IMG/VR virus record: IMGVR_UViG_3300024503_000441
Location: 62,001-126,000 of that record
DNA from: a virus
Length of the DNA stretch: 64,000 nucleotides
Strand: one strand, 5' to 3'
Under the pieces are notes generated by a model. That model was not told where the DNA came from. It made no database searches and worked only from the letters and a program-made list of their open reading frames with translations. Below are positions 11,242 to 48,623 of the stretch, piece after piece. Positions within the stretch are counted from its first letter, which is position 1. Each line of letters opens with the position of its first letter. The position numbers were made by a program, and so were the translations under genes.

Positions 11242-14200
11242 ATGGCATCACTTACATCACCAGGCGTAGCCGTAACGGTAATCGACGAGAGTTTTTATAC
11301 ACCAGCTGAACCTGGTACGACTCCTTTGATTGTTGTGGCAACAGCCCAGAACAAGTTGAATGCTGCAGGAACAGCAACCGCAGCAGGAACATTACAAGCA
11401 AATGCAGGTAAAGCATTTAAGATCACTAGCCAGAAGGATTTGATTGATACCTTCGGCGTACCTTTCTTTGAAAAGACAGCTACAAATAATCCAATCCACG
11501 GTGGCGAACGCAACGAGTACGGTTTACTAGCAGCATACAGCTTGTTAGGCGTTACGAACTCAGTTTTTATCGTTCGTGCTAACATCGATCTAGACCAACT
11601 AGAACCCCAAACAACCGCCCCGGGAGCAGAAGCCAATAACGGTCAATGGTGGATGGACACCAAGGCAACAGCATGGGGTATCCAAGAATGGAACGGCATG
11701 GCAGCTTCAACAAAAGGCGGCCAAACATTTACAGCACAAGTTCCTTTAGTACTAACTGACGATGACGCCAGCAAGATCGATTCCGGAACAGGAGCACCTA
11801 AGGCATCTGTAGGAGTCGACGGCAACTATGCTGTAGTATTCCAGTCAGGCAGCGCCAGTGTTGAAATGGCAACTATCTGGTACAAGCGTCCAGTAAGCCA
11901 CCCAGCAGGAAGTGCATGGGTATTGGTAGGCAGCGAAGATTGGACTGCTTCACATCCAACAGTATACTCAGGCGCCAAGATTGACACCAGCATTGCAGCA
12001 GGTCAGACATTTAAGATCAACGGCAATACTATCACTTTATCAGGTGCTAATAGAACAGCACTGCTAACAAACCTAGCAAATACTATCAATACTTTTAGTT
12101 CACAAGGCATTTCAGGTGCAGTAGTGAATGAAAAACTTTATCTTTACTTCTCCGGTAAGAATGAAGGCGACTCAAGTGTTAATGATGCTCTAAGCCTAGA
12201 AGACGGTACTGGTTCGTGGACAACTATCATGAAGATCAGCACAGGAGTACACTATGCTCCTAAGTTGGTACAAAGCCCACATACACAAGTTCCAGCATTT
12301 AAAGAAGATGATACAGCACCACGTCCAAGTGGTAGCGTATGGCTAAAGACCACAGAACCAAACAATGGTTCACGTTGGAGAATGAAGCGTTGGAGTACTG
12401 TAACTAAAGTATGGTCAGCTGTTGAAGCTTATCTATACGGCAGCACACACGAAGCTGACTATCAGCTCGATCGTGCAGGCGGTGGTAAGAATCTAACTGT
12501 CGATACACTATTCGTCCAGACAAACGCAGACGAGCTAACAGGTGCTAATCAAGCTCCAGGTACAGCAACTTTCCGTATCTGGCGCAGAGCTGTTAAGGGT
12601 GCTACTTCAGTAACATCGCCAGCTAAGACATCAGCATTTTCAGCAGGTGCAAAATCGATCACTATCAGCGAATCAGTGGTCGGTGCAATCGGTCTAAACT
12701 CTATGACTGTTACAACCGCAGCCCTAACAGGCAGCGTTGGTTCAATCAGCGCAGACCTAGAAAAGATTGCAAAGGCCATCAACGACGCTGCTTATAACGA
12801 ACTTACAGACGTTGGTCTTAAGAATGTTAGTGCTACTGTTAACGAAGATAATAGTCTAACTATTACACACGCCGCAGGCGGCGAAATCCGTATTACAGAT
12901 ACTGACGGTGTAGTTGGTTCACTATTTGGATCTACATACAATCCTTATACCAAATCAGGACTGGCAAACTTCTATGCATCACCAGAAGGTGTAGCAGTTA
13001 ACGGTTATGATTATCTAATCTCGAACTGGAGACCATTAGCTAGCGAAGGATTTATTCCAAGCAGCTCAGCTCCAACTAACGAGCCATCCGATGGTCAACT
13101 ATGGTACAACCCAACTGTTAGCGAAGTTGATATCCTAATACACAACGGTGTTACATGGAAAGGATACAGGAACGTATATTCAGGCACTTGGTCAGGTGGC
13201 CCTATTGTAAGTGCATCTAAGCCTACAGAGAATCCAGATGGCGGCGCACTAGCTAACAACGATCTATGGATTGATACTTCAGATGTTGAAATGTATCCAA
13301 GAATATATCGTTACAAGAATGCAGGTCTATCATCAGCAACATGGGTGTTGATTGACAGTGCAGATCAAACAACAGAAGAAGGCATTCTATTTGCTGATGC
13401 ACGTTACGGTGTATCAGGTGCAACTGGCAATATTGCAGGGGCTATTAAAGATCTTCTATCTTCAGACTATATCGACTTCGACGCTCCAGATCCAGCACTA
13501 TATCCAAAGGGTATGTTGCTATGGAACACACGTAGAAGCGGTGGCAATGTTAAGCAGTATCATAACAGTTATGTTGACAAAGATGCAGATAACACACGTT
13601 ATCTAGGTCAGGCACAGTCATTGTATGCAACCGGCAGCAATGATGCTAAAGTATTTGATCGTTGGGTAACAGCAAGTCCAAATAACGAAGACGGTTCAGG
13701 TTCATTCCTACGTCATGCTCAACGCAAAGTGGTTGTCAGCGCACTCAAGAGTGTTGTAGACACAAGTGCTGAGATCCGTGACGAAGAACGTCGTAACTTC
13801 AACATCATTGCTGCTCCAGGGTATCCTGAACTAATGAGCAACTTGGTTAACTTGAATATCGACCGAGGATTGACAGCATTCGTTATCGGTGATACTCCAT
13901 TACGCTTGCCAGCAGATGCTACAAGTCTAACAACATGGGGTACTAACGCTAATCTAGTTACAGACAACGGCGATGATGGTATCGTTACCTATGACAACTA
14001 TCTATCAGTGTTCTATCCAAATGGATTTACCACAGACCTAGGTGGTTACAACGCAGTTGTTCCAGCATCACATATGATGCTAAAAACAATAACATTGAGC
14101 GACAATGTAAGCTATCCTTGGTTTGCACCAGCAGGCACACGCCGTGGTGGTATTACTAACGCAACAGCAGTTGGTTATATCGATGCAGACACAGGTGAGT

Positions 14201-14643
14201 TCCAAACCGTTGCTCTTAACAACGGACAGCGTGATACACTTTATGATCTAAAGATCAATCCAATCGCATTCTTTAATGGTGTTGGACTTGTTAACTATGG
14301 TCAAAAGACACGCGATCCTAACGCAAGCGCATTAGATCGTATTAACGTAGCTCGTCTAGTTGTTTACCTACGTAGCCAACTAAACAAACTTGCTCGTCCA
14401 TACATTTTTGAACCTAATGACAAAATCACACGTGATGAGATTAAGCAGGCATGTGAAAGCCTATTGCTGGAGTTGGTAGGACTAAGGGCACTATACGACT
14501 TCGCAGTTGTTTGTGATGAATCTAACAACACACCAAGCAGAATTGATCGTAATGAGCTATGGGTAGACATTGCTATTAGTCCTGTCAAGGCAGTAGAGTT
14601 CATTTACATCCCACTACGTGTTAAGAACACAGGAGAGATTTAA
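11242..14643 (+). CDS. 18: gp18-like contractile tail sheath protein
   Basis: 1,133 residues. The N-terminus SLTSPGVAVTVIDES and the following PLIVVATAQNK match phage sheath proteins. The C-terminal domain has the family features (RINVARLVVYLRSQLNKLAR, AISPVKAVEFIYIPLRV). The sheath contracts to drive the tube through the host envelope. T4 gp18 is 659 residues; about 450 extra residues are inserted centrally and include repeated FWVKTTEPNNGS-type and LWYNPTVSEVDI-type loops that resemble surface-exposed decoration domains. A strong AGGAG ribosome site precedes it, and gp19 starts 2 bases after the stop. Confidence 0.93.
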   Translation: MASLTSPGVAVTVIDESFYTPAEPGTTPLIVVATAQNKLNAAGTATAAGTLQANAGKAFKITSQKDLIDTFGVPFFEKTATNNPIHGGERNEYGLLAAYSLLGVTNSVFIVRANIDLDQLEPQTTAPGAEANNGQWWMDTKATAWGIQEWNGMAASTKGGQTFTAQVPLVLTDDDASKIDSGTGAPKASVGVDGNYAVVFQSGSASVEMATIWYKRPVSHPAGSAWVLVGSEDWTASHPTVYSGAKIDTSIAAGQTFKINGNTITLSGANRTALLTNLANTINTFSSQGISGAVVNEKLYLYFSGKNEGDSSVNDALSLEDGTGSWTTIMKISTGVHYAPKLVQSPHTQVPAFKEDDTAPRPSGSVWLKTTEPNNGSRWRMKRWSTVTKVWSAVEAYLYGSTHEADYQLDRAGGGKNLTVDTLFVQTNADELTGANQAPGTATFRIWRRAVKGATSVTSPAKTSAFSAGAKSITISESVVGAIGLNSMTVTTAALTGSVGSISADLEKIAKAINDAAYNELTDVGLKNVSATVNEDNSLTITHAAGGEIRITDTDGVVGSLFGSTYNPYTKSGLANFYASPEGVAVNGYDYLISNWRPLASEGFIPSSSAPTNEPSDGQLWYNPTVSEVDILIHNGVTWKGYRNVYSGTWSGGPIVSASKPTENPDGGALANNDLWIDTSDVEMYPRIYRYKNAGLSSATWVLIDSADQTTEEGILFADARYGVSGATGNIAGAIKDLLSSDYIDFDAPDPALYPKGMLLWNTRRSGGNVKQYHNSYVDKDADNTRYLGQAQSLYATGSNDAKVFDRWVTASPNNEDGSGSFLRHAQRKVVVSALKSVVDTSAEIRDEERRNFNIIAAPGYPELMSNLVNLNIDRGLTAFVIGDTPLRLPADATSLTTWGTNANLVTDNGDDGIVTYDNYLSVFYPNGFTTDLGGYNAVVPASHMMLKTITLSDNVSYPWFAPAGTRRGGITNATAVGYIDADTGEFQTVALNNGQRDTLYDLKINPIAFFNGVGLVNYGQKTRDPNASALDRINVARLVVYLRSQLNKLARPYIFEPNDKITRDEIKQACESLLLELVGLRALYDFAVVCDESNNTPSRIDRNELWVDIAISPVKAVEFIYIPLRVKNTGEI

Positions 14644-28789: not shown

Positions 28790-29551
28790 ATGAAAAAGAT
28801 TGTACTTATTACTGGTGGCTTCGATCCGCTCCACTCTGGCCACCTTTCATATATTAAAGAAGCCAAGAAGCTTGGAGATATTCTAGTCGTCGGTGTTAAC
28901 AGCGATGACTGGTTAACACGCAAAAAGGGCCGAGCTTTTATGCCTTACATGGAACGAGCCAACGTCGTACGAAATATTGTTGGAGTAGATTTCGTCATTG
29001 ATTTTGACGACAGTGATAACACAGCCAAACATGCAATACATATGGTTAGACAAAGTTATCCTAGTGATCAAATCATTTTTGCCAATGGCGGAGATAGAAC
29101 TGATAAGAATATTCCAGAAATGGATTTCGCTGATGATAATCTATCATTTGTGTTTGGCACTGGCGGTTTTAACAAATCAAACTCAAGTAGCTGGATCTTA
29201 GAAGAATGGAAAGCACCTAAGACCAAACGTCCGTGGGGGTACTATAGAGTTCTTCACGATGTGCCAGGAATGAAAGTCAAAGAGTTGACTGTTGAGCCGG
29301 GGCATAGCCTTAGTATGCAAAGACATAAGCATAGATCAGAATACTGGATCGTTAGCCAAGGTGCGTGTGTAGTAAACTCAAAAATGGCAGGCGGTTATGC
29401 TCTTCCTCCTACTTTGTTAAAAGAACATCTAGAATATAAAGTACCAGCAGGTGAATGGCATCAACTAACCAATCCTTACGAAGTTCCTTGTAAAATAGTA
29501 GAAATACAATACGGCGAAAAATGCCAAGAAGAGGACATTGAAAGACAATGA
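28790..29551 (+). CDS. Nucleotidyltransferase-cupin fusion (sugar-nucleotide enzyme)
   Basis: 253 residues, two domains. Residues 1-135 form a cytidylyltransferase-like domain with GGFDPLHSGHLSYIKEAK (HxGH-type motif at 15-18), close to the HldE/RfaE C-terminal domain. Residues 147-245 form a cupin of the mannose-6-phosphate isomerase type II kind (RPWGYYRVL, VEPGHSLSMQRHKHRSEYW with metal ligands near His179, His181, Glu184, and EWHQLTN). Fusing sugar activation to a cupin in so short a protein is unusual. Likely role: making an activated sugar for the cassette. Confidence 0.85.
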   Translation: MKKIVLITGGFDPLHSGHLSYIKEAKKLGDILVVGVNSDDWLTRKKGRAFMPYMERANVVRNIVGVDFVIDFDDSDNTAKHAIHMVRQSYPSDQIIFANGGDRTDKNIPEMDFADDNLSFVFGTGGFNKSNSSSWILEEWKAPKTKRPWGYYRVLHDVPGMKVKELTVEPGHSLSMQRHKHRSEYWIVSQGACVVNSKMAGGYALPPTLLKEHLEYKVPAGEWHQLTNPYEVPCKIVEIQYGEKCQEEDIERQ

Positions 29552-34331: not shown

Positions 34332-35534
34332 ATGCTAAAATCTGATTTCATCGAAGACGTTTTCTTAGAATTTTTCGATACCTTTTCTAGGAAGAGTGTT
34401 GCCATCGCGTCTCAGGACCAGTCGGCCTGCCACAGTTTTTATAATGCTATCTATGGCGGTAAAGGACTGACTCAGGCCCAAGCCAACTACATCATAAAAA
34501 TCCTAGAAAAACACAAAAATTTGTCGGCCAACGTGGGTTTTGATTATCGACCGATATTGACACAACCCCACAAATGGAAAAATGCATTCCGAGTCATCGA
34601 CTACTCTAAAAGAGTCTATGTTGAAAAAAATGATCAAGGTCGCATCGATGTATGCCTGAAGTTTCCGTACCAACTCAAGAAGGAATTTGAGGAAGAATTT
34701 GAAGGAAAAAATGCCGAAACTACTAGTAGCCAATGGGACCATGATGCCAAGGTAAGACGTGTTCCTTTATACGACACAAACCTTATACACATTTTTGATT
34801 TTGTTTCAAAGCATGGTTTTGAAATAGATGAAACTTTCATGATAGCCATGGGAGAAGTCGAAGAAATATGGCAAAATCAAGACGATGTTGTTCCTTACTG
34901 TTATTGGGATGGTGGACATATTAGATTGAAAAATGTCTCTGATGACGCATCCAATCATTTTGTCAATCTTCGAACAGATAGATTACCTTCTGATTTAATG
35001 CTGGCGAAATCTATGGGTATTCCTTATAAACCTGGCAATCGTATTGCTTCAGATAATCTTTTATACAAGATCGCCAGCTCAGAAGAAAATCATTTTTGGA
35101 TTAAAAATGTGCAGGAGTTTATAGATCTCTGCTATCATATCGACGATCGTGTCGCTATTCTTTTGGATCCTAATAGTAATGAAATAGAATGGGTCAAAGA
35201 TTTTGTTAAAACGGTCAATGACATGGGGCATGACATCACCAAGGTACGTGTTTGTTTTAGGCAAGATAAAACTATCGATGACGGATTCAATCAATGGATC
35301 AAAGATGCCAATGTAGGCGGACCCGTTGAAGGTGGAAACATTTTAATCTTCAAAGGAAAGCCGGCAAAGTGGTTGTTTAAAGAAACAAAACATGTTACAC
35401 TATTAGCTAGTAATGGTTTGTATCCTTCACCTGGACCCATCACACGAGACTGGATTGATTCTCATCCTTGTGTGATTTATGTGGGCGATATAAAACCTAC
35501 TAGATCGAGGAATAAGAAAATTGTCGAACTGTAA
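34332..35534 (+). CDS. Conserved phage protein of unknown function before UvsW, 400 aa
   Basis: Not assigned to a family. A helical N-terminal 70 residues (FLEFFDTFSRKSVAIASQDQ, LTQAQANYIIKILEKH) precede mixed alpha/beta regions. The C-terminal half contains Rossmann-like alternating strands and helices (VAILLDPNSNEIEWVKDFVKTV, KVRVCFRQDK, HVTLLASNGLYPSPGP) without a P-loop. It overlaps uvsW by 14 bp, so it is coupled to it. A partner of the helicase or a degenerate helicase-like domain is possible. Confidence 0.65.
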   Translation: MLKSDFIEDVFLEFFDTFSRKSVAIASQDQSACHSFYNAIYGGKGLTQAQANYIIKILEKHKNLSANVGFDYRPILTQPHKWKNAFRVIDYSKRVYVEKNDQGRIDVCLKFPYQLKKEFEEEFEGKNAETTSSQWDHDAKVRRVPLYDTNLIHIFDFVSKHGFEIDETFMIAMGEVEEIWQNQDDVVPYCYWDGGHIRLKNVSDDASNHFVNLRTDRLPSDLMLAKSMGIPYKPGNRIASDNLLYKIASSEENHFWIKNVQEFIDLCYHIDDRVAILLDPNSNEIEWVKDFVKTVNDMGHDITKVRVCFRQDKTIDDGFNQWIKDANVGGPVEGGNILIFKGKPAKWLFKETKHVTLLASNGLYPSPGPITRDWIDSHPCVIYVGDIKPTRSRNKKIVEL

Positions 35535-36975
35535 ACTAATAATAAAAGACGAAGTTAATATTAAGTTTGAAGGTCTGGCTGTTGAGACACGGCGAAAGAT
35601 TGTAAACAAGTTAAAGTTCGACCTACCATACGCTCGACACATGCCCGCCTATAAGTTAGGTCGCTGGGATGGAACAAAAACATTTTTTGGTATCGGTGGA
35701 AACGGATATCTAGCGCATCTTGATGTAATACTTCCTATAATCGAGGATTCGGGTTACGATATAGAAGTAGAAGACCAACGTGTATCACACGATTTTAAGT
35801 TTGATCTTATCGGTGATGATTATTGGTCAAAGCAAGGCAAAACATGGCCAGAAGGTCATCAGTTTGCCGGAGAACCTATTGTACTTCGTGATTATCAATA
35901 TGACGTAGTCAATAAGTTTTTAGAGAACCCGCAATCACTACAGGAGGTAGCTACAGGTGCAGGCAAAACGATTACTACTGCGACGTTATCGCATCTTTGT
36001 GAGGTATATGGTCGTACGATGGTTATTGTTCCGAACAAATCGCTTGTTGAACAAACTGAAGCGGACTACAAAAATCTCGGCTTAGATGTCGGTGTTTATT
36101 TCGGCGATAGGAAAGAACTCAATAGGACACACACAGTATGCACATGGCAAAGTCTCAATGTGCTAGATAAGAAAAGCTATGACGAAGAAAGCCTAACACT
36201 AGCAGAGTTCTGCGAAGGAGTCGTGGCTGTCATAGTCGACGAGGTACATCAGGCTAAGGCAGATGTGCTGACAAAACTGTTAACTCAGAACTTCCGTAAC
36301 TGCGGAATACGTTGGGGGTTAACAGGAACCATTCCTAAAGAAAAGTGGGAGTTTCAAAGTGTTTTGGCCAGTATAGGTCCAGTAATCAATCAAGTCACAG
36401 CACACGATCTCCAGCAAAAAGATGTTCTAGCAAAACTAGATATACAAATATTACAGACATCTGATGTGCAGGTATTTAGGAACTATCAAGAAGAATATAC
36501 TTGGTTAGTAACTGACAGCAAAAGATTAGACTGGATCGCCGACAAAATAAAAAGTTTTAGGTCTACTGGAAATACTCTTGTATTAGTGAATCGCATTGAT
36601 ACAGGAGAAAAACTCATTGATAGGATTCCTGATGCTGTCTTTATCAGCGGTGCTGTTAAACTAGACGAACGCAAGGAAGAATATGATGAAGTTAAAACAA
36701 GTGATGACAAGGTTATTGTGGCGACTTACGGTGTGGCCGCTGTTGGCATTAATATTCCAAGGATTTTTAATCTGGTTCTTATTGAGCCCGGAAAGAGCTT
36801 TGTCCGCGTTATACAAAGCATTGGGCGAGGCATTAGAAAAGCAGAAGACAAAGACTTCGTACAGATCTGGGACATCACCAGCACCTGTAAGTATGCCAAG
36901 CGACATCTCACCGAACGCAAAAAATATTATAAGGAAGCAAAGTATCCGTTCACGGTTACAAAGGTAAACACATGA
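35521..36975 (+). CDS. uvsW: UvsW-like superfamily 2 helicase
   Basis: 484 residues with a TTG start inside the previous gene. The N-terminal domain (KFDLPYARHMPAYKLGRWDG) is typical of UvsW. Motif I is ATGAGKT (144-150), motif II DEVH (240-243), motif III LTGT and motif VI QSIGRGIRK. It unwinds R-loops and branched DNA, ends origin-dependent replication and aids recombination. It is followed by a 4-base overlap with the next gene. Confidence 0.93.
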   Translation: MSNCKLIIKDEVNIKFEGLAVETRRKIVNKLKFDLPYARHMPAYKLGRWDGTKTFFGIGGNGYLAHLDVILPIIEDSGYDIEVEDQRVSHDFKFDLIGDDYWSKQGKTWPEGHQFAGEPIVLRDYQYDVVNKFLENPQSLQEVATGAGKTITTATLSHLCEVYGRTMVIVPNKSLVEQTEADYKNLGLDVGVYFGDRKELNRTHTVCTWQSLNVLDKKSYDEESLTLAEFCEGVVAVIVDEVHQAKADVLTKLLTQNFRNCGIRWGLTGTIPKEKWEFQSVLASIGPVINQVTAHDLQQKDVLAKLDIQILQTSDVQVFRNYQEEYTWLVTDSKRLDWIADKIKSFRSTGNTLVLVNRIDTGEKLIDRIPDAVFISGAVKLDERKEEYDEVKTSDDKVIVATYGVAAVGINIPRIFNLVLIEPGKSFVRVIQSIGRGIRKAEDKDFVQIWDITSTCKYAKRHLTERKKYYKEAKYPFTVTKVNT

Positions 36976-38473: not shown

Positions 38474-39140
38474 GTGTGAACACTGCGGTAAGTTATTCGC
38501 TAAAGAAAAAACTTTAGTAGTTCACCTTTGTGAGCAGAAGCGTAGATACATCAGCCGTAATGAACGGCATGTACAAGCAGGTCTTCTCACGTTTCAAAAG
38601 TTCTATGAAGTCGCACAAAAGAATAAAACTCCTAAGACATTTGATGAGTTTGAAGCCAGTCCTTATTACACGGCATTCGTTAAGTTTGGCAGCTTTCTGA
38701 TCAATACCTCGCCTATATATCCTGAACAGTTTATTGATTTTGTTGTAAAGAGTGGAGTGAAACTAGATCACTGGTGTCGAGACGAACTCTATGAACAATA
38801 CCTTAGCGAACTAGTAAAAAAAGAGCCTGCAGACGGTGCTATACAGCGATCTATTAAAACTATGATGGATTGGGGTGATGCTAACAATGCACCGTGGGAG
38901 CATTATTTTCAATACGTCAATCTAAACAGAGCCACACACGATATCCGAGAAGGATTGGTAAGTCCTTGGTTAGTGTTAAATACCAAATCGGGGAAAGAGA
39001 TGTTGTCTAGGATGAACGATGAGCAGTTAGAAATAATAGGCCCGATTATAGATCCACAGTTCTGGATTCGAAGGTTTAAAGCACTGCCTGCTGATATCGA
39101 ACTCATCAAAGACGTTGTTAAAGAAGCGAAAATTTTATAA
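38457..39140 (+). CDS. C2H2 zinc-finger phage protein, 227 aa
   Basis: The ATG at 38457 lets the protein start with MDLNYKCEHCGKLFAKEKTLVVHLC, a C-x2-C-x12-x-H-type finger. The remaining 200 residues are helical (FGSFLINTSPIYPEQFIDFVVKSG, HWCRDELYEQYLSELV, AIQRSIKTMMDWGD) and conserved in aquatic T4-like phages beside gp62. It probably binds DNA or a replication protein, but the role is unknown. Confidence 0.7.
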   Translation: MDLNYKCEHCGKLFAKEKTLVVHLCEQKRRYISRNERHVQAGLLTFQKFYEVAQKNKTPKTFDEFEASPYYTAFVKFGSFLINTSPIYPEQFIDFVVKSGVKLDHWCRDELYEQYLSELVKKEPADGAIQRSIKTMMDWGDANNAPWEHYFQYVNLNRATHDIREGLVSPWLVLNTKSGKEMLSRMNDEQLEIIGPIIDPQFWIRRFKALPADIELIKDVVKEAKIL

Positions 39141-39364
39141 TGCCTAAAAGACCTAAAGAAGAAGTAGTAGAAGAAGAACTGGCTGATAACGAAGAGTTTA
39201 TTTCCAGAGACGATCTAGACATCGAAGTAGTCGTTGGCAATGAATCACCTGATGTATATGTTAAGTTTAGTGGCTTCGAAGACGAAGAAGATGCTGAAGA
39301 GTATGCACAGTTTTTAGCTGACACGTTACCTCTACTATTATTCGAAACGACGAGATTGCAGTAA
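39140..39364 (+). CDS. Small acidic conserved phage protein, 74 aa
   Basis: An acidic N-terminal third, then VVGNESPDVYVKFSGFEDEEDAEEYAQFLADTLPLLLFE, a short beta-hairpin plus helix. It is coupled by 1-base overlaps to both neighbours. The function is unknown. Confidence 0.65.
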   Translation: MPKRPKEEVVEEELADNEEFISRDDLDIEVVVGNESPDVYVKFSGFEDEEDAEEYAQFLADTLPLLLFETTRLQ

Positions 39365-39555
39365 TGAAAACCAGAAAGTTACAAGATGGTTCTGAAGTTC
39401 AAGAACTTGAGGAACCAAAAATCCTTACCGTTAAAACGAAATGTCCAGAAAAATGGTTATTGGTTGACTTAGAGACTGGAGAGCGTTATACTGGATACAT
39501 TACTGATGGAAATCAAAGTTGGAAAAAAGTTAATACATGCCGGACATTGACATAG
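39364..39555 (+). CDS. Small conserved phage protein, 63 aa
   Basis: A beta-rich mini-protein (CPEKWLLVDLETGERYTGYITDGNQSWKKV) that overlaps the DnaE-like gene by 19 bp. Similar short proteins occur beside this DnaE-like gene in related phages. Its function is unknown, but strict coupling suggests that it works with the DnaE-like protein. Confidence 0.65.
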   Translation: MKTRKLQDGSEVQELEEPKILTVKTKCPEKWLLVDLETGERYTGYITDGNQSWKKVNTCRTLT

Positions 39556-40115
39556 ATTTCGTTGATAGAGACCAAGCACTAAAGTTGTTCAAACATATAC
39601 GTGCTAGTCGAATCGAAGATGGTTCTCTTGTAAAACATAATACAGGAGTATACTTTCACGAAGTACCTATGAATGCAGAAAACGGTATGTGTGCAGTACC
39701 GTATGAAGAAGCAGAGGAACGTGGTTATTTTAAAATAGATTTTTTAAATGTAAGTATCTACAAAGGCATCCGAGATGAAGAGCATCTCAAGAAACTGATG
39801 GAGACTGAACCACTATGGGATCTACTGGAACAAGAAGAATTCACGGACTTACTGTTTCACGTAAATGGGCACAGTTCATTGATGAAACAGATGAAACCCC
39901 GAAGTATCGAAGAGTTGGCAATGTGCTTGTCTTTGATACGCCCGGGCAAACGGCACCTACAAGGGAAGACCTGGAGCGAGATTGGTGCGGAGATATGGAA
40001 GAAGCCGACGAACGGTGACTACTATTTCAAGAAGAGCCACGCTGTAGCGTATGCCACTGCTGTAGCAGTACAGATGAATCTAATCTGCGAGCAGATCAGT
40101 TATGGATATAGTTAA
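39537..40115 (+). CDS. Miniature DnaE-like (C-family DNA polymerase) protein, 192 aa
   Basis: This small protein keeps the palm landmarks of bacterial DNA polymerase III alpha in order: PDIDIDF (residues 2-8, equivalent to the E. coli PDFDVDF with Asp401/Asp403), KHNTGVYF (HAGGVVI-like), FKIDFLNVS (Asp68, equivalent to Asp555), LSLIRPGKRHLQG (LFRPGP-like) and FKKSHAVAYA (FNKSHSAAYA-like). All three catalytic Asp are present, although DnaE is over 1,100 residues and the spacing is collapsed. Related phages carry it too, usually annotated as DNA polymerase. Whether it polymerises alone is unknown. Confidence 0.85.
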   Translation: MPDIDIDFVDRDQALKLFKHIRASRIEDGSLVKHNTGVYFHEVPMNAENGMCAVPYEEAEERGYFKIDFLNVSIYKGIRDEEHLKKLMETEPLWDLLEQEEFTDLLFHVNGHSSLMKQMKPRSIEELAMCLSLIRPGKRHLQGKTWSEIGAEIWKKPTNGDYYFKKSHAVAYATAVAVQMNLICEQISYGYS

Positions 40116-40483
40116 GGTGCTTTTCGCACCAAAGTAATCGATTTACGTTTAATACGTTTAACGATTATATCATTAAGGCTAGTACATGGCCCTAGTACTA
40201 CCTTTACATCTTTGGTAGCAAAGTTCCTAATAACGTACCTAAACTGTATTATTTCTTTGTTTAGGAAAATATTGATAGGTATTTGTCTATTAGACTCCCA
40301 CCACCAAGCTTCTCCTAGCTCTAAGAACTTGGCTTTTTCAGCTTCTGTGCGAATAGATGAATAATCGTAGATGCTGGTAACTTGAGCATCCTGATTGATT
40401 ATTATCCCCACGTATTCCTGATTTACGTGGGTTAGGATACTTATGAATGGAAAGTTTTCTTGTAAGTTTTCTGTTATTCTCAT
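40112..40483 (-). CDS. Conserved phage protein of unknown function, 123 aa
   Basis: ILTHVNQEYVGIIINQDAQVTSIYD, LELGEAWWWESNRQIPINIFL, FRYVIRNFATKDVKVVLGPCTSLND and a basic tail form a pattern conserved in T4-like phages of aquatic hosts, where it is also usually alone on its strand. The function is unknown. The stop overlaps the DnaE-like stop by 4 bp, convergent. It lies divergent to the structural gene at 40513. Confidence 0.75.
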   Translation of the reverse strand: MRITENLQENFPFISILTHVNQEYVGIIINQDAQVTSIYDYSSIRTEAEKAKFLELGEAWWWESNRQIPINIFLNKEIIQFRYVIRNFATKDVKVVLGPCTSLNDIIVKRIKRKSITLVRKAP

Positions 40484-41633: not shown

Positions 41634-42638
41634 ATGACTCTGGTAATAGATACATTCCGTAAACTACTCCCACCCCGTGCTAAGGCAACTCCCTCTGGGT
41701 GGACTAGTTTCAATGCCCCATGTTGCGGTCATCGTGGCCATAGTCCAGATACTCGAAAACGTGGTGGAGTAAGGTTTGACCAAGGAATAGTATTCAACTG
41801 TTTCAACTGCAAGTTTAGTGCAAGTTGGCAACCGGGTCGCCCAATATCAGAAAAACTAAAAGCTCTATGTCGTTGGCTCGGTGCCACTGAAGATGATATC
41901 AAGACGTTAGTCTTTGAAGCATTAAAAACAGAAGCGCCAGACTATGTACACGAAGTCAAAGAAGCAGTTAGCTTCACTCCTAAAAAACTACCCGAAGGAA
42001 GTGCTCCACTAACAGAGTGGGCTGAACATCCTTGTTTGCCTGAAGAGTACGGCATTAAGATAGCAGAAGTTGTAGAATATCTAACTAATAGAGGACTAGA
42101 TCCAACTGATCCTTTGTATCATTGGAGTCCTGAAGCAGGGTATGAGAATCGTGTGATCATTCCATTCTTTTATAATGGTGTCGTTGTTGGTAACACAGCA
42201 CGTAAGGTCACTGAAGGAAAACCAAAGTATCTTTCTGATCAACATCCACATTTTGTCTTTAATATCGATTCTCAAGAAGAGGATCAAAAATATCTCTTTG
42301 TATGTGAAGGCCCGTTTGATGCTATATCAGTAGGAGGTGTAGCTTTGCTAACCAATGATATAGCAGATCAGCAGGCACGTATCATAAACAGCCTGGGTGC
42401 AGAAGTTATCGTTATTCCGGATCAAGATGAAGCAGGGCTAAATCTAATAAAGAAAGCCATAGATTATGATTGGTCTGTGGCGTTTCCTAACTGGGATATT
42501 GATGTCAAAGATCCTGCAGATGCTGTGCTTAAATATGGAAAACTATTTGTCATAGTTGACGCTATCAAAACAGCTCAAAAAGGCAAGATAAAAATAACGA
42601 TGGCTATGAATAAATTTAAAAACAATCTAGAGAAATAA
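41634..42638 (+). CDS. 61: gp61-like DNA primase
   Basis: 334 residues (T4 342). The N-terminal zinc-ribbon uses APCCGHRGH (residues 28-36) and CFNCK (56-60). The TOPRIM catalytic core has FVCEGPFDAIS (the conserved Glu) and VIVIPDQDEAG (the DxD-type acid pair). It makes RNA primers with the gp41 helicase, whose gene lies three genes downstream. Its stop abuts the ATG of the small basic gene. Confidence 0.92.
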   Translation: MTLVIDTFRKLLPPRAKATPSGWTSFNAPCCGHRGHSPDTRKRGGVRFDQGIVFNCFNCKFSASWQPGRPISEKLKALCRWLGATEDDIKTLVFEALKTEAPDYVHEVKEAVSFTPKKLPEGSAPLTEWAEHPCLPEEYGIKIAEVVEYLTNRGLDPTDPLYHWSPEAGYENRVIIPFFYNGVVVGNTARKVTEGKPKYLSDQHPHFVFNIDSQEEDQKYLFVCEGPFDAISVGGVALLTNDIADQQARIINSLGAEVIVIPDQDEAGLNLIKKAIDYDWSVAFPNWDIDVKDPADAVLKYGKLFVIVDAIKTAQKGKIKITMAMNKFKNNLEK

Positions 42639-44220: not shown

Positions 44221-45636
44221 ATGATTAAAGATTACGGATACGAAGTACAAAAACTATACCTAGAACTGATGCTAGCAGATGCAGAGGTTTTCGTCAGATG
44301 CCAAGGCATCTTTGACCACACATTGTTTGATCGGAAACTACAAGATGCCGCAGAGTTTGTCAACGAATATGCCAAGCAATATAGTGTGTTGCCAGACTAT
44401 GCAATGGTCAATGCTACCTGCAATGTTTCATTAGAAAAACCCGAAGACGTCAAAGATGGCCACATGGATTGGCTCATGGATGAGTTCGAGCAGTTCACTA
44501 GGCACAAGGCACTTGAACGTGCGATCATTAACTCTGCAGACCTATTAGAAAAACATGACTATGGTCAGGTAGAAGTCATGATCAAAGAGGCAGTACAGAT
44601 AGGTCTAGCCAAGGACATGGGCACAGACTATTTTGCTGATCCTAGAAGTCGACTCATGCGTATCAAGGATAAGAATGGTCAGATATCTACAGGTTGGCCG
44701 ACGTTAGATAAGAGATTGTTTGGTGGTATGAACCGTGGAGAGTTGAATATCTTTGCGGGTGGATCTGGTGCAGGTAAGAGCTTATTCTTAGCGAACCTAG
44801 GTGTGAACTGGGCACTACAGGGTTTAAATGTAGTGTACCTGACACTAGAACTTTCAGAAGAACTTGTTAGTATGCGTATCGATGCCATGCTCACAGGCAT
44901 ACCAACTAAAGAGATTTTCCGTGATCTAGATGACGTAGAAATGAAAGTCAAGATCATCGGCAAGAAGTCTGGCGCTATGCAGATCAAGTATATGCCCAGT
45001 GGAAAGACTGCTAATGATCTAAGAGCATATCTCAAAGAGTTTGAAATCAAAACAGGACGTAAAGTAGATGTACTGCTAGTAGACTATCTAGACTTATTGA
45101 TGCCTGTTAGCAAGAAGATTAGCCCAGCAGACCTGTTTATCAAAGACAAGTACGTTTCAGAAGAACTTAGAAATTTGGCTGTAGAAAAGAACTGCATACT
45201 AGTAACTGCCGCACAGTTAAATCGTGGTGCTGTAGAAGAAGTAGAGTTTGATCATAGTCATATTTCGGGCGGTCTGTCAAAGATCCAGACAGCAGATAAT
45301 GTGTTTGGTATCTTTACAAGTCGTGCTATGCGTGAGCGTGGACGCTATCAGATACAGTTGATGAAAACACGTAGCAGTAGTGGTGTAGGTATGAAAGTAG
45401 ATCTAGAGTTTAATCTAGAGAGCTTGAAGATTTCAGATCTGCCAGAAGAAGAACAAGAACACTCAGGCGCCACAAGCAGAGGCGCAAGCAGCATCATTGA
45501 TTCCATTAAACGTAAGACGGAAGTACAACCTAGAGAAGAACCCGATCAGGGTTCTAGTCTAGGCAAAGTTCGTGCCAATGTAGAATCCACGAAGCTGCGT
45601 GAGATTCTAAGTAGCATGAACTCAGATGAAGAATAA
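44221..45636 (+). CDS. 41: gp41-like replicative DNA helicase (DnaB family)
   Basis: 471 residues (T4 475). The N-terminal helical domain precedes the RecA-fold motor with TGWPTLDKRLFGGMNRGELN, Walker A GGSGAGKS (180-187), Walker B VDVLLVDYLDLL and QLNRGAVEE. A flexible acidic C-terminus follows. It is the hexameric helicase that partners gp61 at the fork. Its stop overlaps the 45626 gene. Confidence 0.94.
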   Translation: MIKDYGYEVQKLYLELMLADAEVFVRCQGIFDHTLFDRKLQDAAEFVNEYAKQYSVLPDYAMVNATCNVSLEKPEDVKDGHMDWLMDEFEQFTRHKALERAIINSADLLEKHDYGQVEVMIKEAVQIGLAKDMGTDYFADPRSRLMRIKDKNGQISTGWPTLDKRLFGGMNRGELNIFAGGSGAGKSLFLANLGVNWALQGLNVVYLTLELSEELVSMRIDAMLTGIPTKEIFRDLDDVEMKVKIIGKKSGAMQIKYMPSGKTANDLRAYLKEFEIKTGRKVDVLLVDYLDLLMPVSKKISPADLFIKDKYVSEELRNLAVEKNCILVTAAQLNRGAVEEVEFDHSHISGGLSKIQTADNVFGIFTSRAMRERGRYQIQLMKTRSSSGVGMKVDLEFNLESLKISDLPEEEQEHSGATSRGASSIIDSIKRKTEVQPREEPDQGSSLGKVRANVESTKLREILSSMNSDEE

Positions 45637-48296: not shown

Positions 48297-48623
48297 GTGA
48301 TTAGGTTCACAGAACGAGCCCGAACTAAAATACAAGAACTACTCAAACAGCGTGGCCGTGGTGTGGGCATACGCATAGGCACCAACACACGTGGCTGCTC
48401 AGGACTGAGCTATGTGTTAGAATACGTAGACACCTACACAGCAGAAGAGGGAGTGACCAACTTCGCACAGCCCGAGTTCGTGGTCTTGGTGTCATTCCGA
48501 GATCAGGTTTATCTCTCAGGGCTAGAAGTAGATTGGGTCAAGAAGGGTCTAAACGAAGGCTTCGAATTTACCAACCCAAACGAAACCGCACGTTGTGGCT
48601 GCGGTGAAAGCTTCAAGGTCTGA
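48297..48623 (+). CDS. A-type iron-sulfur carrier (IscA/HesB-like)
   Basis: 108 residues with a GTG start. VGIRIGTNTRGCSGLSYVLEYVD contains the first conserved Cys, and ARCGCGESF has the paired C-terminal CGCG Cys: the three cluster ligands of A-type proteins. Length matches the family (about 107). It would deliver Fe-S clusters to host or phage enzymes. Phages of aquatic bacteria carry such genes. It converges with the 48613 gene (11-bp overlap). Confidence 0.9.
   Translation: MIRFTERARTKIQELLKQRGRGVGIRIGTNTRGCSGLSYVLEYVDTYTAEEGVTNFAQPEFVVLVSFRDQVYLSGLEVDWVKKGLNEGFEFTNPNETARCGCGESFKV

What the first reader, a model, noticed from the sequence alone, without database searches (positions are those of the whole stretch)
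39537..40115. A 192-residue protein that keeps the complete catalytic signature of DnaE (C-family) polymerase
PDIDIDF, KIDFLNVS, a GV-x-F strand, IRPG and FKKSHAVAYA occur in the same order as in bacterial DNA polymerase III alpha, and the three catalytic Asp equivalents are present in one sixth of the length. T4-like phages replicate with the B-family gp43, so a second, miniature C-family palm is unexpected. It is co-translated with two tiny conserved proteins, which could be its partners. Relatives exist in other phages, but I know of no biochemistry.
Basis: partly seen in the sequence, partly recalled or inferred. Interest (0 to 1): 0.75.

Follow-up and report, generated by a model that had tools for sequence, protein, structure and literature searches.

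The report
Half of a split phage polymerase
This small gene encodes one half of a stripped-down bacterial-type DNA polymerase that large T4-like phages carry beside their normal polymerase; the other half is a separate gene far away, a pair described from sequence in 2021 but, as far as I could find, never tested in the laboratory.

Summary
The three metal Asp (D3, D5, D68) and the E. coli steric-gate His (H168) are invariant in 18 divergent relatives, and dN/dS is about 0.08. AlphaFold gives a confident fold (pLDDT 89.5) whose only good PDB matches are Pol III alpha. The reading "complete catalytic signature" is wrong. The protein lacks the dNTP-binding Gly-Ser (GRGS) motif, the thumb and the index finger. 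The missing segment (E. coli ~285-393, ending in GRGSS...EFL) is a separate 155-180 aa gene, found in 9/9 cultured relatives tested but not in this 147-kb fragment. This is the C-terminal subunit of the split minimal Pol III alpha that Iyer et al. (2021) described in group 2.2 jumbo phages with a B-family polymerase. The tiny upstream proteins are clade-specific, so they are poor partner candidates. New here: the exact break point, the residue inventory, and a precedent. Cellulophaga phage phiST and Tenacibaculum phage Larrie carry a full-domain DnaE split at the same junction as their only recognised polymerase, so a two-chain palm can probably work. Activity and complex formation remain untested.

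The parts
39537..40115 (+). C-terminal (metal- and template-binding) subunit of the split minimal Pol III alpha, 192 aa
39537..39560 (+). MPDIDIDF: catalytic Asp D3 and D5 (E. coli D401, D403); the protein begins exactly here
39633..39656 (+). KHNTGVYF strand = E. coli KHAGGVVI (510-517); invariant H34 and G37
39732..39746 (+). KIDFL: third catalytic Asp D68 (E. coli D555) and invariant K66 (K553)
39933..39947 (+). LIRPG finger motif (E. coli LFRPG 637-641); R135 and P136 invariant
40026..40055 (+). FKKSHAVAYA O-helix motif; H168 = E. coli steric gate H760
   Evidence: PMC8485763
38424..39140 (+). Conserved upstream neighbour with a C2H2-like zinc finger (phrog_11058); candidate accessory DNA-binding factor, function inferred only
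   Evidence: 86/89 loci, still recognisable in most distant phages
40112..40483 (-). Conserved convergent neighbour of unknown function (phrog_11637), overlapping the stop of the C-half gene
   Evidence: 86/89 loci
39140..39364 (+). 74-aa protein, clade-specific neighbour; not an established partner
   Evidence: 65/89 loci, none of nine distant phages
39364..39555 (+). 63-aa protein overlapping the start of the C-half gene, clade-specific
   Evidence: 28/89 loci; matches the last 54 residues of phrog_4098
35521..36975 (+). UvsW-like helicase, upstream member of the conserved replication and recombination block
41634..42638 (+). Toprim primase, downstream in the same block
44221..45636 (+). DnaB/gp41-like helicase, downstream in the same block

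Best explanation
The protein is the C-terminal subunit of a phage-specific, two-chain minimal Pol III alpha. It supplies the three metal-binding Asp, the primer/template face and the steric-gate helix. A second chain, encoded tens of kilobases or more away, supplies the Gly-Ser (GRGS) element that holds the dNTP triphosphate. The chains are expected to join without covalent linkage, because no intein is present at either end, completing one pol-beta-type palm. With no thumb, index finger, PHP, HhH, OB or obvious clamp-binding part, the enzyme should be distributive and make short stretches of DNA (primer extension, gap filling or recombination-linked synthesis) beside the intact B-family replicase. 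Shown: sequence, fold, split point, conservation, co-occurrence. Inferred: heterodimer, polymerase activity, short-patch role.
For: Homology and fold: PHROG 11778; AF2 pLDDT 89.5; the top 13 PDB fold matches are all C-family alpha subunits and nothing else exceeds probability 0.05. Invariant residues over 18 divergent homologues include D3, D5, D68, K66, H34, R135 and H168, all identical in E. coli DnaE; 13 of 19 mapped invariant positions match E. coli against 24 of 81 other mapped positions, Fisher p = 0.002. Complementary half: the N-unit profile aligns to E. coli 285-393 and ends at FLN393, while the C-half starts at 399; AF2 pLDDT 90.5, best fold matches Pol III alpha. Co-occurrence: both halves in 9/9 cultured phages examined and nearly equal record counts by host genus. 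N- and C-half distances correlate, r = 0.78 over 14 genomes (shared ancestry not removed). Precedent: phiST and Larrie have a full DnaE split at the same junction and no detectable PolA or PolB.
Against: No complex was modelled and no activity is known. The index-finger block with E. coli LRRAMGKK (708-715) and the thumb are missing, so catalysis could be weak or absent. The partner is not found in this 147-kb fragment nor in one 280-kb relative. Genes of the two halves are never within 6 kb in the 80 + 80 viral loci and no fused form was found.
Confidence: 0.6

Rival explanations
1. A pair that keeps the NTase active site but is not a templated DNA polymerase: for example a terminal transferase or a nucleotidyltransferase acting on DNA ends, RNA or protein.
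For: The thumb and index finger that grip primer-template and triphosphate in DnaE are absent, while metal Asp, GRGS and the sugar-contacting His are kept.
Against: The steric-gate His, the RPG finger segment and the KHxxG strand, which in DnaE serve dNTP and template handling, stay invariant; the gene sits in a UvsW-primase-helicase block.
Confidence: 0.18
2. A catalytically dead structural or regulatory remnant, for example a scaffold in the phage replisome or a decoy of host Pol III.
For: Large loss of DnaE domains; relatives have an intact B-family polymerase with exonuclease and polymerase motifs.
Against: All three Asp invariant in 18 divergent sequences, strong purifying selection, and retention together with the GS-bearing half. 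A decoy would not need the metal ligands.
Confidence: 0.15
3. A stand-alone miniature polymerase, helped by the 74-aa and 63-aa upstream proteins.
For: Translational overlap with the 63-aa ORF and close spacing in the window clade.
Against: No GRGS motif in this chain; the small proteins are absent from the distant relatives; a dedicated complementary half exists.
Confidence: 0.05

Closest known systems
Split minimal DNA polymerase III alpha of group 2.2 jumbo phages (Iyer et al. 2021, PMC7824862; phrog_11778 + phrog_11127)
   Same: Same protein family, same split into an N-terminal NTP-binding and a C-terminal metal/template-binding protein, T4-like phage context with B-family polymerase in relatives.
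   Different: Nothing basic. Member from an uncultured lineage (32-55% identity to the nine cultured relatives aligned); the partner gene is not in the available fragment.
Bacterial DnaE / Pol III alpha (E. coli DnaE, 1160 aa)
   Same: Palm and finger active-site residues in the same order.
   Different: 192 aa; lacks the GRGS segment, PHP, thumb (~96 residues between the first two blocks reduced to 17), index finger (~110 residues reduced to about 22), HhH, OB and C-terminal parts.
Two-gene DnaE of Cbastvirus (Cellulophaga phage phiST, Tenacibaculum phage Larrie)
   Same: Break at the same place, between FERFLN and PDIDTDF (PF07733 positions 98/100).
   Different: Genes adjacent, full set of domains, apparently the only polymerase of the phage; extra tails of unknown nature at the junction.
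Cyanobacterial split-intein DnaE (from general knowledge, not examined here)
   Same: DnaE encoded as two separate genes.
   Different: That break lies near FNKSH and is healed by a trans-splicing intein; here the break is before PDIDIDF and no intein sequence is seen.

Membership tests
Split minimal Pol III alpha, C-subunit (phrog_11778) | Family-level sequence match over the full length | tested here: met
   E = 4.3e-71, residues 3-186
Split minimal Pol III alpha, C-subunit (phrog_11778) | Starts at the PDxDxD strand, with metal Asp triad | tested here: met
   D3, D5, D68 invariant; N-terminus fixed by an in-frame stop
Split minimal Pol III alpha, C-subunit (phrog_11778) | N-terminal GRGS half encoded in the same genome | tested here: inconclusive
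   Not found in the 147-kb fragment; found in 9/9 cultured relatives and 6 large metagenomic relatives
Split minimal Pol III alpha, C-subunit (phrog_11778) | B-family polymerase in the same genome | tested here: inconclusive
   Not in the fragment; in 10 of 17 records incl. all 6 cultured ones, catalytic motifs intact where checked
Split minimal Pol III alpha, C-subunit (phrog_11778) | The two halves form one active enzyme | not testable with these tools
   Complex prediction and biochemistry not available
C-family DNA polymerase (DnaE/PolC) as a stand-alone enzyme | Metal-binding Asp triad and steric-gate His | tested here: met
   H760 role from PMC8485763
C-family DNA polymerase (DnaE/PolC) as a stand-alone enzyme | GS motif in the same palm chain | tested here: not met
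   GRGS lies in the separate N-half
C-family DNA polymerase (DnaE/PolC) as a stand-alone enzyme | Thumb and index finger | tested here: not met
   Lengths between aligned blocks and absence of the LRRAMGKK region
C-family DNA polymerase (DnaE/PolC) as a stand-alone enzyme | PHP, HhH and OB domains | tested here: not met
   Pfam finds only a sub-threshold finger match
Split-intein DnaE | Intein fragments at the broken ends | tested here: not met
   N-half ends 33-41 residues after GRGS starts; C-half begins MPDIDIDF; break site differs from FNKSH

The most novel reading that the evidence does not exclude
A working DNA polymerase whose single pol-beta-type palm is assembled from two separately encoded chains, the triphosphate-binding GS loop on one and all three metal Asp on the other. 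At about 350 residues in total it would be the smallest C-family polymerase, used as a dedicated second polymerase beside the B-family replicase.
Probability: 0.5. Interest if true: 0.7.

Novelty: new member of a known kind. Interest (0 to 1): 0.45.

Why it matters
If the pair is active it defines the smallest core that can still do C-family chemistry, shows that a polymerase palm can be split between two genes, and gives T4-like jumbo phages a second polymerase whose job is unknown. It would also give a small model of the bacterial replicase active site, an antibiotic target, and would test the claim by Iyer et al. that such minimal modules resemble ancestral Pol III. The exact junction and the invariant residues found here make the test straightforward.

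Tried and rejected
Stand-alone miniature polymerase: rejected, GS motif missing and found in a second gene. The 74- and 63-aa upstream proteins as general partners: not supported, clade-restricted. DnaQ/epsilon as an obligatory partner: a DnaQ-like gene lies near the C-half in 121Q, the Vibrio phage and XacN1, but none is detected in G000, G002-G004 or Phosso. Natural fusion of the halves: not found in the 160 loci or by a junction DNA pattern; the two pattern hits are ordinary C-halves. Own-genome copy of the N-half, DNA_pol_B or DNA_pol_A: none in the 147-kb fragment. Cellular homologues: only 11 contigs, all in MAGs, probably phage contigs binned with bacteria. A viral scan with the Vibrio C-half gave nothing usable. 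Profile comparison of the C-half with the single E. coli sequence was weak (probability 4%); the case rests on motif order, PHROG/Pfam pieces and fold.

Full report
What is there. The ORF at 39537-40115 (+) encodes 192 residues beginning MPDIDIDF; an in-frame TAA two codons upstream fixes the start. It belongs to PHROG 11778 "DNA polymerase" (E 4e-71), is weakly recognised by the Pfam Pol III finger model, matches 93 phage records, almost all large myoviruses, and has at least 555 relatives in viral contigs. Pairs at 80-97% identity give median dN/dS 0.079, so it is a real gene under strong constraint. In the bacterial and archaeal genome collection only 11 contigs match, all in MAGs, so it is essentially a phage protein.

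Residues. Across 18 divergent homologues (32-70% identity to the window protein) the invariant positions include D3, D5, D7, H34, G37, K66, D68, P121, R135, P136, H168 and Y172. By anchored alignment these equal E. coli D401, D403, D405, H511, G514, K553, D555, P625, R639, P640, H760 and Y764; 13 of 19 mapped invariant positions are identical in E. coli against 24 of 81 other mapped positions (Fisher p = 0.002). D401, D403 and D555 are the catalytic residues and H760 the steric gate of E. coli Pol III alpha (PMC8485763). What is missing is as telling: between PDIDIDF and KHNTGVYF about 96 E. coli residues (thumb region) shrink to 17, and between LIRPG and FKKSH about 110 residues (index finger with LRRAMGKK) shrink to about 22. 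No PHP, HhH or OB domain is present.

Fold. AlphaFold2 on an alignment of 55 sequences (the window protein and viral-contig relatives) gives mean pLDDT 89.5. Foldseek against the PDB returns Pol III alpha or PolC chains as its first 13 hits, E down to 8e-4, and nothing else above probability 0.05. High rmsd values reflect long gapped alignments over a multi-domain target. Coordinates are not returned, so Asp distances were not measured; that they meet in one site is inferred from the alignment.

The other half. DnaE has its GRGS motif (E. coli 361-364) just before PDxDxD; this protein begins after it. A search with Pfam PF07733 found a second small gene in all six cultured phages first tested and in three large metagenomic relatives, and later in three further cultured phages and four further contigs. 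It encodes 155-180 residues ending ...VWGVGRGSSVASYVLYLIGVHKVDSVKYNLPIEEFFK and then stops, 33-41 residues after the start of GRGS in all viral loci where it was located. Its profile aligns to E. coli 285-393 and stops at FLN393, while the window protein starts at the equivalent of M399. Its AlphaFold model (pLDDT 90.5) also matches only Pol III alpha/PolC well. The two genes thus divide one palm between the GS loop and the DxD strand. They lie 11-44 kb apart in several cultured phages, more in others, never within 6 kb in the 160 viral-contig loci, and no fused version was found. Both halves are present in 9/9 cultured phages examined in detail; record counts by host genus are nearly equal (Escherichia 34/34, Pseudomonas 11/11, Salmonella 8/8, Erwinia 8/8, Klebsiella 11/10). 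The one C-half record I did not see among the listed N-half hits, PP728206, is a 109-kb record and may be incomplete. Distances between genomes for the two halves correlate (r = 0.78, 14 genomes), as expected from shared descent; this is not by itself evidence of contact.

This genome. The window lies in a 147,329-base viral fragment. Neither the N-half, nor a B-family, nor an A-family polymerase is in it. Large relatives with C-halves roughly 65-70% identical do carry a B-family polymerase, and its exonuclease I, A, B and C motifs are intact in those checked. So the "second polymerase" context is an inference for this phage, a finding for its relatives. One 280-kb relative (G001) has the C-half and B polymerase but no detectable N-half, unexplained unless that contig is incomplete.

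Neighbours. The constant surroundings across distant phages are a UvsW-like helicase, a 168-aa protein (phrog_11279), a zinc-finger protein (phrog_11058), the convergent 123-aa gene (phrog_11637), a Toprim primase and a DnaB-like helicase. If an accessory protein exists besides the N-half, the zinc-finger protein (86/89) and the convergent gene product (86/89) are better candidates.

A precedent for a split palm. While checking N-half hits I found that Cellulophaga phage phiST and Tenacibaculum phage Larrie encode a full-domain DnaE as two adjacent genes cut at the same junction: gene 1 has PHP and PF07733 positions up to 98 and continues past FERFLN with a 50-60 residue tail; gene 2 starts with a short leader and then PDIDTDF (PDIDSDF in Larrie), PF07733 from position 100, fingers, HhH and a weak OB match. 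No PolA or PolB was detected in either phage. Other phage DnaEs looked at are single chains. A palm broken at this loop therefore probably supports replication in these phages, which makes a working two-chain enzyme in jumbo phages more credible. I found no mention of this two-gene DnaE in the papers read.

Prior art. Iyer et al. 2021 (PMC7824862; [quoted passage not shown] The N-half had been noted as a truncated alpha subunit in phage CBB (PMC5259590) and listed in Atu_ph07 (PMC6102473); PF07733 marks 51.9% of one marine jumbo-phage cluster (PMC9123017). Paper searches found no biochemistry, within an open-licence library only.

Verdict. The family is known, so this is a new member of a known kind. 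The additions here are the exact break point, the residue inventory (what is kept and what is lost), correction of the proposed partners, and the independent same-site split in Cbastvirus. Complex formation, activity and role remain inferred.

Noticed in passing
L241:2822-6422 (Cellulophaga phage phiST) and L240:3146-6726 (Tenacibaculum phage Larrie): Full-domain DnaE split into two adjacent genes between FERFLN and PDIDTDF, the same junction as the jumbo-phage split, with extra 50-60 residue and 17-residue tails at the break; no other polymerase detected. Whether the tails are a degenerate intein or linkers is open.
   Followed up: partly
phrog_13169 (463 aa), phrog_7513 (461 aa), phrog_12219 (823 aa): PHROG lengths and match positions suggest further phage DnaEs broken near the same junction; member sequences could not be read here.
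   Followed up: no
L208:2533-3045 and 13884-14495 (Alishewanella phage Slickus01, 141,644 bp circular record): Both halves occur in a phage well below jumbo size, so the split enzyme is not limited to jumbo genomes.
   Followed up: partly
window:39364-39555: 63-aa ORF matches only the last 54 residues of a 559-aa phage family (phrog_4098); perhaps a detached C-terminal domain.
   Followed up: no
window:26781-35534: A block of sugar-nucleotide and glycosyltransferase-like genes sits between UvsY and UvsW, where 121Q has only a DnaQ-type exonuclease; includes a cytidylyltransferase fused to a mannose-6-phosphate isomerase-type cupin (28790-29551).
   Followed up: partly
window:42740-44203: Carbamoyltransferase (PF02543 + PF16861) inserted between the primase and DnaB-helicase genes; matches in 66 of 89 loci at a median of about 44% identity.
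   Followed up: partly
window:46254-46958: NTP_transf_2 nucleotidyltransferase domain protein just downstream of the DnaB-like helicase.
   Followed up: no
window:56569-58966 (-): MoxR-like AAA ATPase followed by a DUF2201 metallopeptidase/VWA protein, a chaperone-like pair on the minus strand; an IscA-type Fe-S protein lies at 48297-48623 (+).
   Followed up: partly
Agrobacterium phage Atu_ph07 (MF403008.1) at 212336-213688: The B-family polymerase of Atu_ph07 is itself found in two separate open frames (578 and 418 aa).
   Followed up: no
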